Shown piece after piece: positions 8,255 to 34,857 of a stretch of DNA of 64,000 bases. This DNA comes from Halarcobacter anaerophilus (GTDB lineage: Bacteria > Campylobacterota > Campylobacteria > Campylobacterales > Arcobacteraceae): NCBI RefSeq assembly GCF_006459125.1, contig NZ_CP041070.1, forward strand, positions 1,860,001 through 1,924,000, in the 5' to 3' direction. A program made the position numbers and the translations under genes. The notes beneath the pieces were generated by a model that did not search any database, was not told the origin of the DNA, and worked only from the letters and a program-made list of their open reading frames with translations. Position 1 is the stretch's first letter, and the number at the start of each line of letters is the position of its first letter.

Positions 8255-8300
8255 TTTTTTGAATGTTCTACTACAATGTAGCATTTTATTTCCTTTTCTT

Positions 8301-8368
8301 CATAACGTTTGAAATGAGCCAATAAATTGCCCGCAGGGTAATTTATTGGCTCCACTGACTTGTTAGCC
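8301..8368 (-). repeat. attC site of cassette C
   Basis: On the minus strand it starts GGCTAACAAGTCAGTGGAGCC, has a long imperfect palindrome (AATAAATT.../AATTTATT around a GCGGG loop), and ends GGCTCATTTCAAACGTTATG. The core boxes and inner boxes are arranged as in classic 60-base elements. It begins directly at the TAA stop of the SH3-domain gene. Confidence 0.85.
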
Positions 8369-8980
8369 TTATTTAACTTTGATATTTTCTTTTGTCACCC
8401 ATCCAATTTTTCCTTTATCAGTACCAGCCAAAACTCTGATTTTATACCATGTCAAAGAGTCTATGGTTTGTTCTTCAAGTATATTGAGAGGTGTGCCAAT
8501 CATTAGCCTTGGAATATCTTGGTTTGATTTTGATAGTAGATTGAACAATTCTTGTTTATTTGGTTTATTAAATAATCTATTACCTAGACCATTGTCCTTA
8601 ATTACATATTGTGTTTGAGATGTTGATGTATAACTTTGAATTCGATGCCTTTCTTCAAGAAGAAGAAAAGCAATTTCTTTTTTACAAGTTCTTGAATCTT
8701 TCATTTGATCAGGTAGAGAATCGTATGGTAACCCCTGATATTCAGTATTGTTAAGAGTGTACATACCTTCAGCGTTAAATTTTACACCCAAAAGTTTTGA
8801 TAAGGGTTTTATATTACCTGCTATTTCTGCTTTTATCGTTGAACGATTAATAGAACCTGATAGACTTACTTCATCACATATTGATTTTGCAAAAGTAGAA
8901 ATATCATTTAGTGTTTCTGCATAACATGAAATAGTAAGTGCTATTACTAATGGAAATAAAACAATTTTTTTTGGAAACAT
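8369..8980 (-). CDS. cassette C: secreted SH3-domain protein
   Basis: A 203-residue protein with an N-terminal signal peptide (lysines, hydrophobic stretch, probably cleaved near SCYAE) and a C-terminal bacterial SH3-like domain around residues 155-203, including WYKIRV and GKIGWVTKENIK. The middle region is of unknown family. It is likely periplasmic and may bind peptidoglycan. It is the only gene of its cassette: AGGAG precedes the ATG by six bases, and the start lies about 30 bases from the recombination point. Function is unknown. Confidence 0.7.
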   Translation of the reverse strand: MFPKKIVLFPLVIALTISCYAETLNDISTFAKSICDEVSLSGSINRSTIKAEIAGNIKPLSKLLGVKFNAEGMYTLNNTEYQGLPYDSLPDQMKDSRTCKKEIAFLLLEERHRIQSYTSTSQTQYVIKDNGLGNRLFNKPNKQELFNLLSKSNQDIPRLMIGTPLNILEEQTIDSLTWYKIRVLAGTDKGKIGWVTKENIKVK

Positions 8981-9003: not shown

Positions 9004-9072
9004 GGCTAACGTTTGAGTTGAGAAATATTTGAGCCGCAAGGTCAAATATTTCTCTCCAATGTTTTGTTATAT
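9004..9072 (-). repeat. attC site of cassette B
   Basis: On the minus strand: core TATATAAC, then inner arm GGAGAGAAATATTTGACC, loop, complementary arm GCTCAAATATTTCTC, then AACTCAAACGTTAGCC. The stem GAGAAATATTTGA/TCAAATATTTCTC is 13 bp. The TAA stop of brnA sits inside the core box. Confidence 0.85.
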
Positions 9073-9321
9073 ACCTGTTACTTTTGAGTTCAAACCTTGC
9101 AGTCTTTCAGCTAACCACATTTTTATAACTGCCTGACGACTTACCCCGATATGTTTAGCTTCTTTATCCAAAGAATCAACCATCCAAGAAGGGAAATCAA
9201 TGTTTACTCTTTTAGGTTCTTCATTTATCATTTTGATTTTTGATGTATCAAAATACTCTAAAATATCTTCTTGATTTTCATCAAATTTTTTATCTAGCTC
9301 TGATGCTTTCATAAAGTTCAA
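9067..9321 (-). CDS. brnA: cassette B: BrnA-type antitoxin
   Basis: An 84-residue antitoxin of the BrnA/CopG kind. An acidic N-terminal part is followed by a ribbon-helix-helix segment (RVNIDFPSWMVDSLDKEAK, then GVSRQAVIKMWLAERL). It should neutralise BrnT and, with it, repress the brnTA promoter. Its start lies 32 bases inside the 3' end of brnT, so the two are translationally coupled. Its stop codon lies in the attC core. Confidence 0.88.
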   Translation of the reverse strand: MNFMKASELDKKFDENQEDILEYFDTSKIKMINEEPKRVNIDFPSWMVDSLDKEAKHIGVSRQAVIKMWLAERLQGLNSKVTGI

Positions 9322-9565
9322 TCTCCTTTTTTCTTGATCTTCTCACAGAAATAATTCTAATAACATCATCTCTATAAGTTATAATTGCAGTATAGTTTTT
9401 AGAAGTTATTTGACCTAAAACTAAAAACCTATCTTCATCTTCACTTTGAATAGATGGTAATTCAAAAGAGTATGGATCTTCCCATAACTCTTTTGCTTCT
9501 TCAAAATCAATACCATGTTTTGACTTATTGGTTTTACTTTTATTTTCATCATATTCAAATTTCAT
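9290..9565 (-). CDS. brnT: cassette B: BrnT-type ribonuclease toxin
   Basis: A 91-residue BrnT toxin with the family start FEYDENKSKTNKSKHGIDFEEA, the central strand pair RFLVLGQI and the C-terminal IRIISVRRSRKKEIELYE. BrnT is a RelE-fold ribonuclease that halts translation. TATAAT on the minus strand (9572-9577), preceded by TG with one spacer base, ends only six bases before the ATG and there is no ribosome binding site, so its own transcript is probably leaderless. An inverted repeat CATAT-TT-ATATG (9579-9590) just upstream of the -10 may be the BrnA operator. Confidence 0.9.
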   Translation of the reverse strand: MKFEYDENKSKTNKSKHGIDFEEAKELWEDPYSFELPSIQSEDEDRFLVLGQITSKNYTAIITYRDDVIRIISVRRSRKKEIELYESIRAR

Positions 9566-9578
9566 ACTAAAATTATAC

Positions 9579-9590
9579 CATATTTATATG
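9579..9590. promoter_or_regulatory. candidate BrnA operator next to the brnT -10 box
   Basis: CATAT and ATATG half-sites separated by TT lie directly upstream of TATAAT (minus, 9572-9577). The placement suits autorepression by a ribbon-helix-helix antitoxin. The repeat is short and AT-rich, so chance is possible. Confidence 0.35.
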
Positions 9591-9630
9591 AGATTTTGTT
9601 TTATTTGTAGGTTTGGATTATATTTTTAGA

Positions 9631-9972
9631 TTAAAGTGCATCAAAAATATTTTTTAGAGTTGACAAACTTGTACTATTATCAAATTCATGTAAGTTTGAA
9701 CCTTGTATAGTTTTCTCTCTCATGTCAATTTTACCAGTGTCATGATTGTAAACAAAAGCATACTTTTTACCATTTATATTTACCCATAAAACATTTTTAG
9801 TTTCGCTTTCTCTTTCCATAACCTTTATTGATGCGATATCTTTTTTCCACACAATAGCACCAGCCAATGCCAAAGCAATTTCATTTACATTTCCTGCATG
9901 ATGGTCTGCTCTACCCATTACACCTATAATATATTCTTGTAATGTATCTACATCTTTTACTGTTACTGCCAA
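9631..9972 (-). CDS. cassette B: small conserved protein of unknown function
   Basis: A 113-residue soluble protein with the segment GRADHHAGNVNEIALALAGAIVW followed by basic and acidic residues and NGKKYAFVYNHDTGKIDMR. It resembles small hypothetical proteins often carried on cassettes and other mobile DNA, but I cannot name a function. The start is a TTG at 9972 with AAAGGAT placed correctly, about 20 bases from the recombination point, a typical first-gene-in-cassette position. It shares the cassette with brnTA, 65 bases downstream, with no attC in between. Confidence 0.65.
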   Translation of the reverse strand: MAVTVKDVDTLQEYIIGVMGRADHHAGNVNEIALALAGAIVWKKDIASIKVMERESETKNVLWVNINGKKYAFVYNHDTGKIDMREKTIQGSNLHEFDNSTSLSTLKNIFDAL

Positions 9973-9987
9973 TTTAAATCCTTTTGT

Positions 9988-10118
9988 ATATAACGTTGGA
10001 ATTGAAAAACAAGGAAAGATATCACTTGTTTGTTCAAAACCATTTAATTGTTCTACTTACGATTATAAGTTTGAAACCGCAAGTATCTCCTTGTTTTTTT
10101 CCAAAGTGTTGTTATGTG
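9988..10118 (-). repeat. attC site of cassette A (long form)
   Basis: About 130 bases. On the minus strand: core CACATAAC, then AACACTTTGG, stem AAAAACAAGGAGATA, a roughly 70-base terminal region, stem TATCTTTCCTTGTTTTT, then CAATTCCAACGTTATAT. Its length and layout resemble the long repeats of chromosomal integrons. It starts 18 bases after the TGA of the 253-residue gene. Confidence 0.85.
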
Positions 10119-10135
10119 ATTCTTACACATTAAAA

Positions 10136-10897
10136 TCACTCATAAGGGTCAACACACAAAGATTTTAATAACATTTTTATTTCATCTAAAGTTGTAAAAC
10201 TTGAATCTATTAAATATGGATTATTTTCATCATTATCACATCCAATAGATTTATCTATTGTAATATTCTTTTTAACTATATTATTATCAACAAAAATATC
10301 CATATTTTTATTGATATTATTTTTTGTAAATTTACATACTTTTTCTAAACCTTGTTTAGAGAAATAAAGATTAAAACTAAAATCTTTATAAGCAACTCCT
10401 CTGATATCTTTTATATCATCACAAGAAAAATTTAATTTTTCTTTTCCTATATTAAAATTTAAAGTTCCTTTTTGTTGTATGACCTTTTTTTCTTTTGGAT
10501 ATTGTATTACATTTTTACAATGCTTAAAAGTATTTATGAAAGCATCTATGTTACCTGTTTCTGAGTGAAGAATCATTCCTGAATGTTCTCCTTTGGGTAG
10601 TTTTTTATTTCCCATCGGTTCAGTAATTTTTATGGGCTTAAAAATCACTTTATCATTTGATATTAACATTAAATCTTTATTTACATTATTTTTAGTGAAT
10701 TGATATATCTTATTTGCACCTTCTTTGGTATAATCGATATCAGCTGTGTAGTTACTGATTTTTTTAATATAGTTAACATCTTTACATTCTAAAGTCACTG
10801 ATTCATTTTTTATTATGAAATGATTAAAAGAATGTGCTAACAATAAATTAGATATTAAAGTTAAAAATAATAATGATTTCATTTTAATAAAACTCAC
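10136..10897 (-). CDS. cassette A: secreted protein with duplicated SecDF-head-like domain
   Basis: A 253-residue protein with a signal peptide (cleavage near LLAHS). Two repeats follow, at about residues 33-128 and 153-249. Each has a cysteine near its start (LECKDV / FSCDDI), a central FTKNN(V/I)NK segment, then a strand pair and a terminal helix ending in a cysteine. The middle of each repeat resembles the head subdomain of the SecD periplasmic P1 region (T-x-N-x-x-K followed by strands and I-D/T-x-x-I). It is free in the periplasm rather than membrane-embedded, so it is not SecD itself. It overlaps the preceding gene by 14 bases. Function is unknown. Confidence 0.6.
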   Translation of the reverse strand: MSFIKMKSLLFLTLISNLLLAHSFNHFIIKNESVTLECKDVNYIKKISNYTADIDYTKEGANKIYQFTKNNVNKDLMLISNDKVIFKPIKITEPMGNKKLPKGEHSGMILHSETGNIDAFINTFKHCKNVIQYPKEKKVIQQKGTLNFNIGKEKLNFSCDDIKDIRGVAYKDFSFNLYFSKQGLEKVCKFTKNNINKNMDIFVDNNIVKKNITIDKSIGCDNDENNPYLIDSSFTTLDEIKMLLKSLCVDPYE

Positions 10898-11195
10898 ATC
10901 TAATTATTTGTCCAGTTCCAAAACTTTTTGCACTAAAACTAATGTTTTGTATATTTCCATCATATGGAAAATCTTTTTTATTTGGTCCATTAAATTCTAT
11001 TGTTTCATTAAATAAATGAATTCTAAATTTAAATGGAGATTTTATGCTAGATTCTGATGAAACTTTTATTTTTCTAGTTCCAGAGGAACCAAAAGGAGGT
11101 TTATCCATCTGTATTTCAGGACCCCAAGTCATTGGTCCTGCATAGACTTTGTAAATCTTTGGGCTGTTATCATATATTGGCCAAACTCCTGCCAT
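10884..11195 (-). CDS. cassette A: 103-residue unknown protein
   Basis: I do not recognise the family. The sequence begins MAGVWPIYDNSPKIYKVYAGPMTWGPEIQ, is rich in strand-forming and aromatic residues, and has no signal peptide or membrane helix. The start has AAGGATTAGAT just before the ATG. Its 3' end overlaps the secreted duplicated-domain gene by 14 bases, so the two are translationally coupled and probably act together. Confidence 0.6.
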   Translation of the reverse strand: MAGVWPIYDNSPKIYKVYAGPMTWGPEIQMDKPPFGSSGTRKIKVSSESSIKSPFKFRIHLFNETIEFNGPNKKDFPYDGNIQNISFSAKSFGTGQIIRCEFY

Positions 11196-11252
11196 ATCTA
11201 ATCCTTAAAAATTAATTTTAATGGATAGTTATATTTTAACACAATGTTTATT

Positions 11253-11260
11253 CACATAAC
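11253..11260 (-). repeat. 5' core of cassette A (array boundary, attI-like junction)
   Basis: GTTATGTG on the minus strand is the exact complement of the closing core CACATAAC of cassette A's attC. It marks the right end of the array. No complete attC precedes it (context AATAAATAGTTATG), so it is either an attI-type junction or the insertion boundary. Confidence 0.65.
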
Positions 11261-11485
11261 TATTTATTGAATCCACATTATATAAATAAAGTACTTAAAT
11301 CTACTTATTTATTATATATTTAAAAAAGAGCTTAATTTAAGTATATTTATAAAAAAAGATTACAAATTATAATAATTTTTATATATATTTTTATTATAGC
11401 TTATAATTTCTTTTTTTATTTTATATTGATATTTAGAGCTTTAATATACATAGTGTATGTTAAATACAAAAACATTCAGGAAGTA
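11261..11485. other. AT-rich flank right of the cassette array
   Basis: A very AT-rich stretch with no frame worth calling and no recognisable integrase remnant. If an integron platform once lay here, no trace is visible. Confidence 0.5.
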
Positions 11486-31278: not shown

Positions 31279-33258
31279 TTAATTTATAAATCCTCTATTT
31301 CTCCATCGTCTACCATTAACTAAATTTTCAAAATCTTCATTTTCTAAATCTAAATGATCTGCATGATCTATAATTATTATCTGAGGTTCAATACCTGTTT
31401 CTTTTTGTGTATTTTTACAATATGATACAAATTGATTAAAAATATTTGTTACAGCTTCCATATCTTCGTCAAGATTACTATTCACATCTCCTTTTTTCTC
31501 TTCTATTTTTTGAGCACTAAACTCATCTTCATTATCTTTTATAGTAGTTGGGAAATATACTTGTGTAGGTTGATCTAAAAATAAAATCTGAGGGACTAAA
31601 GAGTCTCTACCTCTTAAAGAAAAAAACTTATGTATAGCTAGAAATAAAGTTAAATGACTGTATAACCAATTGGCACCACTTCCCATAGACCTTAAATATA
31701 CTTTACTCCCATCTTCTTTTTCATGCCATAAATCAAAACTATCTAATGAAAATCTTAAATTTATAGGTTTATAGGATTTTTCAAAATAAAAGTTTTTACC
31801 AATTTCTTTCATTTCATTATTAATATAGGTTTCTGTCTCTTGAATTTTTTTATCAATATCAAATTTAGATTTCAAAGAAGTTTTAAAACCTTTAATATCT
31901 TTTTTCACTTCTTTTATATCTTTTTCAAGGCTATTATCTCTTTTATTAAGTAAACTTTCAAGTAGGTTTTCTATTTTTAATTTAGCTTTTAATGTTTGCT
32001 CATTTAGACTTTTATTTTTTGCTAAATTTTCTGTAATCTTTTCTAAAGTTTCCATTTCTTTTTTTTTATTCTTTAAGTTATTGTCTATTTCAGCAATTTT
32101 TCTTTTAACTTCATTTTTATCACTTTCAAAAGAATCAAGGAGATAAGGAGATTTTTTGAGTTCATCATTTAGCCAATTTATAGCTTCTTCTAACTGATTA
32201 GCTTCACTCATTGTACTTTTTGATTTTTCATTACAAAATGGACATTTTGAGGAATGAATAATAGCTTTAATTGTATTTTTATTATTGGCTAATTCTTCTT
32301 TATATTGTTTAGCATATTTTGTTGATGAATCAATATTTCTGTATTTATAAACTAGTTTTCTTTTTTCTGATAAAAGTTTGTTATACTCCTCTTTTAGTAA
32401 CAATAATTTTTCGATTGAATTATCACTATCTTCTTTTATTAATATACTTTTAGCATCAAGTTTATCAAGATAGTTAGCAGGATTTGAAAGAATAATAGTA
32501 GCATTTTCTTCTAAAAGTTTGGTTCCACTAATTGTTTCATATTCTTCTAAAAGTATATTAAGTCTTCTAGCATTAAAATCTCTTTGATAATTTATACTTT
32601 CTTGTTCTTTTTCAAATTTTTTTAATTTTCTTTCACTATCAGCTAAATTTTGTTTTAATATATAGTATTCTTGTGTTACAAAACCAGCAAAAATTTTAAA
32701 TTGATCAATCGTTTGTTCTCTTCTCTCTTTTTGATCAAATCTATAGAATAGTGAATGTTTATTTGCAATTAAATTTTGGTGTTGTAATAAATAAGGGATA
32801 AAATTTCTAATTGAAGGTCGCCCTTTTTTTCTTGTATACTGTAAAACTTCTTTATCTTCATCAATGTCATTTATATCAAGTCCAAAGTAATGTCCTAAAT
32901 TCACATTAAAATCACTAGTAAAATACTTCGATTCAAAATATTCTTTATTTAGAAACTCAATATCTGGTAATTGCTGCTCCTCTTTTAAAAATATTTTTGT
33001 ACTATCTTCCATTCTTCCTAAAACTAAAAATACCTCTTTAATAGATAAAACAATAAAGTATATATCTGCTTTATCTGTAATCTCTCCTGATGGGATATTG
33101 AACTCACTGCTTCCCATACAATAATCAAATATTTCAATCATTGCGCTTTTACCTGTTGAAGATCTTCCTGTTATAACATTTACACCTTTTGTAAATTCAA
33201 CACTATGAATATTGTTATTCTTGTCAACTACACCAATATGTTTTACATAACTTTTCAT
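31279..33258 (-). CDS. ABC three-component system ATPase (DUF3732)
   Basis: SMC/Rad50-like ABC ATPase of 659 residues, the ATPase of ABC three-component (ABC-3C) conflict systems. Walker A is GRSSTGKS at 31-38. Long coiled coils surround a CPFC pair at 339-342 like a zinc hook. The signature-like GSGAN follows, then Walker B LFLDQPTQ at 559-566 and the switch histidine region IIIDHADH at 628-635. By family knowledge it senses invading nucleic acid or protein and licenses the effector. Its ATG overlaps the stop of the middle component by four bases. Confidence 0.88.
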   Translation of the reverse strand: MKSYVKHIGVVDKNNNIHSVEFTKGVNVITGRSSTGKSAMIEIFDYCMGSSEFNIPSGEITDKADIYFIVLSIKEVFLVLGRMEDSTKIFLKEEQQLPDIEFLNKEYFESKYFTSDFNVNLGHYFGLDINDIDEDKEVLQYTRKKGRPSIRNFIPYLLQHQNLIANKHSLFYRFDQKERREQTIDQFKIFAGFVTQEYYILKQNLADSERKLKKFEKEQESINYQRDFNARRLNILLEEYETISGTKLLEENATIILSNPANYLDKLDAKSILIKEDSDNSIEKLLLLKEEYNKLLSEKRKLVYKYRNIDSSTKYAKQYKEELANNKNTIKAIIHSSKCPFCNEKSKSTMSEANQLEEAINWLNDELKKSPYLLDSFESDKNEVKRKIAEIDNNLKNKKKEMETLEKITENLAKNKSLNEQTLKAKLKIENLLESLLNKRDNSLEKDIKEVKKDIKGFKTSLKSKFDIDKKIQETETYINNEMKEIGKNFYFEKSYKPINLRFSLDSFDLWHEKEDGSKVYLRSMGSGANWLYSHLTLFLAIHKFFSLRGRDSLVPQILFLDQPTQVYFPTTIKDNEDEFSAQKIEEKKGDVNSNLDEDMEAVTNIFNQFVSYCKNTQKETGIEPQIIIIDHADHLDLENEDFENLVNGRRWRNRGFIN

Positions 33259-33734
33259 AATTCTTTTACCCCTAATTGTCTATAAATAGATATAACATCT
33301 AATTCTTTAAAAATATTACATAGTTTAGAGGATGCTTTAAAAGCATCACTCAAACTTACCATATTATTTTCTTGTTCTTCTATTACTACTATAGATAAAT
33401 CATCTTCTAATTTCAACCATTTATTCTCAATAGCATATAAAATACATTGATTAGTAATTTCTTTGTACTCTTGAACTCTTTTTTGAAGTCCGTAAACATT
33501 CTCTCTTTTTTCTTTTTTATTACTATCTAGGAAGCTAAATATACTACTTGTTTTTTTAGATGTTTTAATTTTTTTCTGGCTTGTTTTATATAAAATTAAA
33601 GGTAATACTAAATATGACAATAATAAATTTTTAGAAGTTGGTTTTAAATTTTTGTAAAAAACTAAAAATAGTGGTGTTAATACAAAAATATTGTTATTGA
33701 TTTTATGAATACTGTCTACATATTTACTCATCAC
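33255..33734 (-). CDS. ABC three-component system middle component
   Basis: A 159-residue protein typical of ABC-3C middle components: a short N-terminal helix, the hydrophobic segment LLLSYLVLPLILYK, a basic linker, then a winged-helix-like C-terminal part. It links the effector to the ATPase. The start overlaps the effector gene by 11 bases and the stop overlaps the ATPase start by four, so stoichiometric co-translation is likely. Confidence 0.8.
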   Translation of the reverse strand: MMSKYVDSIHKINNNIFVLTPLFLVFYKNLKPTSKNLLLSYLVLPLILYKTSQKKIKTSKKTSSIFSFLDSNKKEKRENVYGLQKRVQEYKEITNQCILYAIENKWLKLEDDLSIVVIEEQENNMVSLSDAFKASSKLCNIFKELDVISIYRQLGVKEL

Positions 33735-34857
33735 TTACCTCCAATTTCCAAACGAGTTTATTTGGATTTTCCTCATCATTTGCAATTTCATGTAAAAGAC
33801 CATTACGATATTTTTTAGGAGTATAATTATAATTATAAAAGTCGGGTGAGTTTTCACCAGTTACATCATCATATAAATCTTTAGATTTATCAATACAATT
33901 AGAAGAGTTAGCACTTCTCAAAGCTTTTCTACGTTTACTTTCAAAAGTTCTAAAAATTTCATCTTCATAAGAATCATATTCTTTCTTTGATATTTCAAAA
34001 TTTTTTAACTCTTCATTAAGTATTCTTCTTGCATAAATAAAATCACTAATCACATCACTTTTAACTTCTTTATATTCTATATCTTCTATTTTATTAACAA
34101 AGGAGTAAGATTGATGAGTAGATAGGTCCTTTTCTGTTATAGGATTCATTTCAACTTTGGGGAATACTTTAGTTGTGGAAGTATATGTTTCTATTAAAGA
34201 AGTTGTTTTTTGTCTAAAATCTTTATTTTTTATTTCCCATCCACCTGATGTAATTTCTGGTTTAATGATATAGCCTACAAGGGAGTCTATATATTCATCT
34301 CTTTTAGCTTCAATTATCCCGTCAGTCCTTGTTTCTATAAATTTATCATACAAAACTTCATCATTATCAACTCCACTTTCTATAATAAAAATATCTAAAA
34401 TTTCTAATAACTTATCATTCTTATTAGCATCTAATACTCTATCTAGTAACATCTGAGTTTTTTTTGCTTTTTTTAGCTGATGATTATACTCATCGGCAAT
34501 AGAATTTAAGATTTCTAGTTTTTGATTTTTATCTTTAATGTTCCATTCAATAAATTTTGAATTAGGACTAATAGTTTGAGTAGTTAATAAAATAAAACTA
34601 TGATAATAAGATATATTAAACCCATCATCTAGCCAGTTTTTCATTGTTTTCCAAATATTATGATCTAAGTCTGTTAAATCTTTTTGATAATCTTTAACTT
34701 CTATTTGCACACCGTCAGAATTTGTAACATCACCATATTTCTCGATCCAAATGGATTCATCATTTTGCATTTCAAAACACTTTTCCAATGCAACTAAAAA
34801 CTGATAAATAATAGGTTTAAATGTCTTTGTTGAATCATGATTTAATTTACCACTCAT
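33724..34857 (-). CDS. ABC three-component system effector with nuclease-like N-terminus
   Basis: A 377-residue protein. The N-terminal 120 residues fit a PD-(D/E)xK nuclease fold: helix, then D43 in YGDV, then E53-x-K55 in VQIEVKDY, as in DUF4297/Cap4-type DNases. LTDLDHNIWKTMKNWL follows. The C-terminal part (about 240-377) is the ABC-3C docking domain that binds the middle component. The expected role is DNA cleavage when the ATPase is triggered. It starts 34 bases after the full-length stop of kwaB. Confidence 0.72.
   Translation of the reverse strand: MSGKLNHDSTKTFKPIIYQFLVALEKCFEMQNDESIWIEKYGDVTNSDGVQIEVKDYQKDLTDLDHNIWKTMKNWLDDGFNISYYHSFILLTTQTISPNSKFIEWNIKDKNQKLEILNSIADEYNHQLKKAKKTQMLLDRVLDANKNDKLLEILDIFIIESGVDNDEVLYDKFIETRTDGIIEAKRDEYIDSLVGYIIKPEITSGGWEIKNKDFRQKTTSLIETYTSTTKVFPKVEMNPITEKDLSTHQSYSFVNKIEDIEYKEVKSDVISDFIYARRILNEELKNFEISKKEYDSYEDEIFRTFESKRRKALRSANSSNCIDKSKDLYDDVTGENSPDFYNYNYTPKKYRNGLLHEIANDEENPNKLVWKLEVSDE

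What the first reader, a model, noticed from the sequence alone, without database searches (positions are those of the whole stretch)
9994..11259. Cassette encoding a secreted, duplicated SecDF-head-like protein and a coupled unknown partner
The 253-residue product has two copies of a fold that resembles the SecD P1 head, each with paired cysteines, but no membrane part. It overlaps an unrecognised 103-residue gene. A free, duplicated Sec-head-like domain on a mobile cassette with a partner could be a new effector, inhibitor or envelope-protection pair.
Basis: partly seen in the sequence, partly recalled or inferred. Interest (0 to 1): 0.55.

Follow-up and report, generated by a model that had tools for sequence, protein, structure and literature searches.

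The report
Bacterial toxin with Sec-like immunity protein
A mobile gene cassette carries a small, probably bacteria-killing toxin related to colicin Js together with a secreted protein that most likely protects the producer, and that protector is built from two copies of a domain otherwise found in SecD, a part of the protein-export machine, which raises the question of what the toxin attacks.

Summary
Window 10139-10882(-) encodes a secreted protein with two SecD-P1-head-like repeats (Pfam SecDF_P1_head over its cut-off; the seven best VIA fold matches are all SecDF/translocon). The 'unrecognised' 103-aa gene upstream is a divergent relative of the colicin Js / colicin Z C-terminal domain family. 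Of 23 distinct loci with this toxin domain (Arcobacteraceae, enterobacterial plasmids and genomes, phage contigs), 20 carry a P1-head-like secreted protein next door: same strand in Arcobacteraceae, convergent in Gammaproteobacteria. The exceptions are pColZ (a four-helix immunity protein instead) and two doubtful weak hits. The colicin Js plasmid has this arrangement, and orphan partner genes sit beside another bacteriocin-immunity gene. Best reading: a bacteriocin-immunity pair on an integron cassette, the duplicated P1-head protein being the periplasmic immunity protein. New here: a SecD-P1-head relative as immunity protein, its spread over two phyla, its duplicated cassette-borne form, and an argument that the shared C-terminal domain is the killing part. 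Whether the immunity protein mimics the toxin's target (SecDF) is open.

The parts
9994..11259 (-). integron-type gene cassette holding the pair
   Evidence: downstream attC-like hairpin 9986-10126; GTTATGTG junction sequence at 11253-11260 read on the minus strand
10884..11195 (-). 103-aa colicin Js/Z-type small beta-sandwich toxin (predicted)
   Evidence: NF041262 29.8 bits, E 5.6e-7, below its cut-off of 50; 30% identical over 91 columns to the L018 toxin, which passes the cut-off; AF2 pLDDT 83.5, eight strands
10136..10882 (-). 248-aa secreted, tandem SecD-P1-head-like protein, predicted periplasmic immunity protein (253 aa if begun at GTG 10897)
   Evidence: PF22599 over cut-off; SecDF best fold matches; partner HMM
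10829..10882 (-). signal sequence, no lipobox (read by eye)
   Evidence: sequence; helix 4-14 in the model
10493..10828 (-). P1-head-like repeat 1
10139..10480 (-). P1-head-like repeat 2 (VIA Z 8.7, rmsd 2.5, 97 residues, 21% identity to SecDF 5xan_A)
9986..10126 (-). attC-like site of this cassette
   Evidence: z -3.2, 2 of 200 shuffles as good
9004..9076 (-). attC-like site of the next cassette (VCH_CASS14 + BrnT/BrnA)
   Evidence: z -4.8, 0 of 200 shuffles as good
8300..8366 (-). attC-like site of the third cassette (SH3/GW-like secreted protein 8369-8980)
   Evidence: z -5.0, 0 of 200 shuffles as good

Best explanation
The cassette is a bacteriocin-immunity pair of the colicin Js type. The 103-aa protein is the toxin: a stand-alone small beta-sandwich domain, the same domain that ends larger colicins (colicin Z family, Klebsiella and Yersinia colicins), acting in the periplasm or on the outer face of the inner membrane of competitors. 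The 248-aa protein is exported by Sec, stays soluble in the periplasm, and protects the producer by binding the toxin with its two SecD-P1-head-like domains. Most relatives do the same with one lipid-anchored domain. Shown here: homologies, folds, conserved pairing. Inferred: toxicity, direct binding, site of action, release route (lysis or an unknown exporter).
For: Toxin-domain match. Pairing in 20 of 23 distinct toxin loci, including all 8 loci of the genome-contig scan, 7 of which have partner sequences not used in the HMM. Orientation differs between phyla while the pairing stays. The colicin Js plasmid carries a P1-head-like lipoprotein gene convergent to the activity gene; 34 plasmid records hold it at 99% identity or more. 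Partners look exported: 13 of the 18 in A8 have a lipobox. Orphan partners: one in G396, extra partner genes in Photorhabdus beside broken toxin frames or none, and E. coli plasmids near a colicin E1-type microcin immunity gene. That colicin Js has a plasmid-borne immunity gene is stated in the title of Smajs and Weinstock 2001, seen only in a reference list.
Against: No experiment on the window's genes. The toxin match is below NCBIfam's cut-off. pColZ, the one toxin of this family whose biochemistry I read about, uses a different, four-helix immunity protein, although an 82% identical Serratia toxin sits beside a P1-head-like lipoprotein. No receptor-binding part or export signal is visible in the toxin. 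The histidine of the KSH..GQ motif is Phe in the window copy.
Confidence: 0.83

Rival explanations
1. Decoy: the immunity protein is a mimic of the toxin's target. The toxin binds the periplasmic P1 head of SecD and stalls SecDF-assisted export; the immunity protein offers extra P1 heads.
For: A partner HMM without any SecD row finds, after the pair genes, almost only SecD P1 heads: 32 of 41 matches in 104 genomes are 521-548-aa frames, and 15 of 15 fetched ones are SecD; hhalign E 1.7e-5; partner fold matches are SecDF. The toxin fold gives no enzyme-like match.
Against: Colicin Z is reported to degrade peptidoglycan (PMC6668396, passages). Enterobacterial partners are not closer to E. coli SecD than to the compact Arcobacter SecD, so they are not fresh copies of the host's protein. 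Homology shows origin, not target.
Confidence: 0.2
2. Peptidoglycan-targeting toxin: the beta-sandwich domain attacks or deregulates peptidoglycan as reported for colicin Z, and the P1-head fold was simply recruited as a binding scaffold.
For: Dye release from stained peptidoglycan and MALDI-TOF for colicin Z (PMC6668396, passages); telocins TelC/TelD described as like a peptidoglycan-degrading bacteriocin (PMC12042878, section 10); a periplasmic immunity protein fits.
Against: Activity about 15% of lysozyme in that paper, which assigned it to the central part, absent from stand-alone members; no hydrolase-like fold match.
Confidence: 0.4
3. The shared domain is a receptor-binding module (as PMC6668396 proposed for the C-terminus of colicin Z) and the P1-head protein protects indirectly or does something else.
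For: Colicins Js and Z share the CjrC receptor and this domain.
Against: Stand-alone 92-103-aa members have nothing else, and the Yersinia frederiksenii protein has only a Gly-rich low-complexity N-terminus besides it; the P1-head partner follows this domain across different N-termini.
Confidence: 0.12
4. Type VI-delivered effector-immunity pair.
For: The own genome has an Hcp gene.
Against: Of 4 toxin-bearing Arcobacteraceae genomes only 2 (G000, G530) have Hcp; 20 of 104 in the family do.
Confidence: 0.12

Closest known systems
Colicin Js and its plasmid-borne partner (E. coli NZ_AP022653.1, L025)
   Same: 94-aa stand-alone toxin of the same domain family beside a P1-head-like secreted protein
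   Different: convergent genes, small plasmid, single-domain lipoprotein; in the window same strand, integron cassette, soluble duplicated partner
Colicin Z (pColZ)
   Same: C-terminal domain of the toxin
   Different: extra N-terminal and central regions; four-helix immunity protein without P1-head likeness
SecD / SecDF P1 head (PF22599; 3aqo, 5xan)
   Same: fold and sequence signature of each repeat
   Different: no transmembrane helices, duplicated, encoded beside a toxin
Klebsiella telomere-phage telocins TelC/TelD (PMC12042878)
   Same: bacteriocin-immunity cassettes said to resemble a peptidoglycan-degrading bacteriocin
   Different: sequence relation to the window not tested here; reference 44 of that paper was not read

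Membership tests
NCBIfam NF041262 colicin_Z_Cterm | score at or over the curated cut-off of 50 bits | tested here: not met
   window 29.8 bits; bridging relatives over cut-off: own-genome second copy 91, L018 51.4
Colicin Js-type toxin-immunity pair | toxin domain next to P1-head-like secreted partner | tested here: met
Colicin Js-type toxin-immunity pair | killing of sensitive cells and protection by the partner | not testable with these tools
   bench work
Pfam PF22599 SecDF_P1_head | score over the gathering cut-off of 27 bits | tested here: met
   33.8 bits, two stretches
SecD (TIGR01129) | match over the curated cut-off for the whole protein | tested here: not met
   24.7 bits against 244.4; the genome has its own SecD of about 524 aa
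Integron gene cassette | attC site folding as a hairpin beside the genes | tested here: met
Integron gene cassette | integron integrase in the genome | tested here: not met
   best TIGR02249 match 51 bits, cut-off 265; an array without integrase
Type II toxin-antitoxin | cytoplasmic antitoxin | tested here: not met
   partner has a signal sequence, read by eye
Type VI effector-immunity | T6SS in the genomes that carry the pair | tested here: inconclusive
   Hcp in the own genome but in only 2 of 4 toxin-bearing Arcobacteraceae

The most novel reading that the evidence does not exclude
The colicin Js/Z domain family kills by seizing the periplasmic P1 head of SecDF, a bacteriocin class aimed at the Sec export machine, and its immunity proteins are decoy P1 heads, taken to a tandem, soluble form on an integron cassette in Arcobacteraceae.
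Probability: 0.18. Interest if true: 0.88.

Novelty: new variant of a known kind. Interest (0 to 1): 0.6.

Why it matters
It ties a poorly understood bacteriocin class (colicin Js, colicin Z) to one conserved immunity fold across two phyla, reassigns which part of colicin Z is likely the killing domain, and points to a directly testable target, the SecD P1 head. It also shows a bacteriocin-immunity pair held as an integron cassette.

Tried and rejected
G365/L007 and G372/L009 matches: chance, antisense or unrelated frames. G343/L012 (18.5 bits) and Buttiauxella L028: weak, no partner; kept in the denominator of 23. tblastn of the window toxin found nothing in plasmids (E to 10) or phages (E to 0.01); the Yersinia domain found nothing in phages; the viral scan with the single protein found nothing. 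tblastn of the window partner in plasmids gave two Novosphingobium hits at E 3-4 only. PADLOC gave nothing useful. PDB sequence search: none for the toxin; the partner's two hits were E 0.25 (an unrelated synthase) and 2.6 (SecDF 3aqo). Toxin fold matches are common beta-sandwiches, best Z 9.2; no family absence is claimed from that. The fresh-copy form of the decoy idea was tested and not supported. T6SS link not general. Literature: 'SecDF + immunity protein + bacteriocin' 0 papers, 'SecD + P1 head + immunity protein' 0, 'colicin Z + structure + cytotoxic domain' from 2020 0; 'bacteriocin + SecD + periplasmic + immunity' 5 and 'colicin Js + immunity + lipoprotein' 4, listings only, none by title or abstract start on this subject; integron + cassette + Arcobacter 46, six listed, none on this. 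Open-licence library only.

Full report
What is in the sequence. On the minus strand, a 103-aa ORF (11195..10884) is followed by a 253-aa ORF from GTG 10897 or, more plausibly, a 248-aa ORF from ATG 10882 with a clear signal sequence. The 2-kb block holding the pair is AT-rich (24% G+C against 31-32% in the blocks on either side; other blocks of the window are as low). Downstream, in the same orientation, lie a VCH_CASS14 integron-cassette protein (2.1e-41) with BrnT/BrnA, and a secreted SH3/GW-like protein. Three stretches beside these genes fold as attC-like hairpins (z -3.2, -4.8, -5.0); the stretches 9566-9640 and 11210-11300 do not. No integron integrase reaches the cut-off in the 3.02-Mb genome. 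So the pair is the first of three cassettes in an array without integrase.

The large protein. PF22599 (SecDF_P1_head) matches it over the cut-off in two stretches. Its halves align far above shuffles. An AlphaFold2 model (pLDDT 70.8; hardly any related row covered the second half) shows two similar repeats. Foldseek's best matches are SecDF entries, and VIA ranks 1-7 are all SecDF/translocon, best Z 8.7 over 97 residues at 21% identity on repeat 2; unrelated rows start at Z 5.3.

The small protein. NF041262, the colicin Z C-terminal domain, matches it with E 5.6e-7 but below the cut-off. The same model finds a second, strong copy in the same genome (91 bits) and copies in G396, G530 and G544: 4 of 104 Arcobacteraceae genomes. 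The G544 toxin links the window's copy to the family (30% identity over 91 columns). The model is an eight-stranded beta-sandwich, pLDDT 83.5, resembling common jelly-roll-like domains only.

The pair recurs. In all five Arcobacteraceae loci the toxin is followed on the same strand by a short secreted P1-head-like protein, overlapping by 14 (with the GTG start), 4, 1 and 1 bases or 13 apart. With these as bridges, plasmid records gave Klebsiella, Yersinia, Serratia, colicin Js and colicin Z, viral contigs gave two near-identical phage loci, and one genome-contig scan gave eight more. From the plasmid records eight neighbourhoods were read. Over 39 sources and 1324 ORFs, the toxin HMM marks 23 distinct loci (L035 has the L017 sequence and is not counted again); 20 have a partner next to the toxin, convergent at 33-192 bases in Gammaproteobacteria. 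The three without are pColZ and two weak hits (L028, L012). Some of the 20 toxin frames are damaged or cut (L031 tail, L033 contig edge, L036 fragment). Seven of the 20 had partner sequences not used to build the partner HMM. In this search the best partner-HMM hit outside the pairs is the genome's own SecD, E 5e-5.

The partner is a SecD P1-head relative. A partner HMM of 18 rows, with neither window nor SecD rows, gave 41 matches in 33 of 104 Arcobacteraceae genomes: seven rows are pair or orphan partner genes, one a remnant with stops (G543), one an unrelated 299-aa frame (G377), and 32 are frames of 521-548 aa; all 15 of these that were fetched and compared are SecD, and where shown the match lies on the P1 head. 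hhalign gives E 1.7e-5, probability 79%, over 48 columns. Pfam finds PF22599 in 8 of 18 single-domain members at E up to 1, the next family in 2; among partners scanned only the window's is over the cut-off. For the colicin Js partner the best NCBIfam matches are SecDF models, E 1.5e-4. Pairwise, several partners show no significant similarity to any one SecD.

Why immunity. Partners look exported, 13 of 18 with a lipobox. The colicin Js plasmid carries activity, immunity and release genes by the title of Smajs and Weinstock 2001 (seen in a reference list; the paper is not held); that the convergent 129-aa gene is the immunity gene is my inference and recollection. 34 plasmid records carry that partner at 99% or more, nearly all of them also in the toxin list. 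Partner genes without a working toxin neighbour, typical of immunity genes, occur in G396, in Photorhabdus and on E. coli plasmids, there near a ChaN-family lipoprotein gene (CjrA by recollection, i.e. near the colicin Js uptake genes) and a colicin E1-type immunity gene.

What the toxin does. PMC6668396 (abstract and passages) reports that colicin Z degrades peptidoglycan at about 15% of lysozyme activity, and guesses that the centre kills and the C-terminus binds the receptor. The distribution argues that the C-terminal domain is the killing part: it stands alone in 92-103-aa proteins, follows a Gly-rich low-complexity N-terminus in Yersinia frederiksenii and a ColA_N-type N-terminus in Klebsiella, and the P1-head partner goes with it. 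The puzzle is colicin Z itself: E. coli uses a four-helix immunity protein while the 82% identical Serratia toxin has the P1-head lipoprotein. I rank a peptidoglycan-related action first (0.4), a Sec-directed action with decoy immunity at 0.2, the rest unknown. Against the simplest decoy form, enterobacterial partners do not resemble E. coli SecD more than the compact Arcobacter SecD.

Delivery. The own genome has an Hcp gene, but only 2 of the 4 toxin-bearing Arcobacteraceae genomes do, so a T6SS is not required in general. Release and uptake remain unknown.

Verdict. A toxin-immunity pair of the colicin Js kind, in a variant form; the window's toxin fails the curated cut-off of the colicin Z domain family, so 'works like' is the stronger claim. 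The SecD-head immunity fold and its duplicated cassette-borne version were not found in print by the searches in an open-licence library.

Noticed in passing
G000:C1:924209-924855 (L011, L014): Second pair in the same genome, with a single-domain lipoprotein partner, between housekeeping genes.
   Followed up: yes
L026 1892-2347 and L027 2335-2739: 82% identical colicin Z toxins with unrelated immunity genes: a four-helix membrane protein in E. coli, a P1-head lipoprotein in Serratia.
   Followed up: partly
L072, L073 2501-2881: Orphan P1-head-like gene on E. coli plasmids between a ChaN-family lipoprotein gene and a colicin E1-type immunity gene.
   Followed up: partly
L015 7329-7736: Orphan second partner gene in G396, near a repeated small membrane ORF.
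   Followed up: no
L066, L069, L070, L071 (G562): Photorhabdus genome with four partner genes; toxin frames nearby are broken or absent.
   Followed up: partly
window 9067-9972: VCH_CASS14 cassette protein and BrnT/BrnA toxin-antitoxin appear to share one cassette (no attC-like hairpin between them).
   Followed up: no
window 8369-8980: Third cassette: secreted protein with a C-terminal SH3/GW-like domain.
   Followed up: no
window 31279-34857: Three adjacent minus-strand ORFs (659, 159, 377 aa), the first SMC/ABC-like by eye; possibly a defence system, not searched.
   Followed up: no
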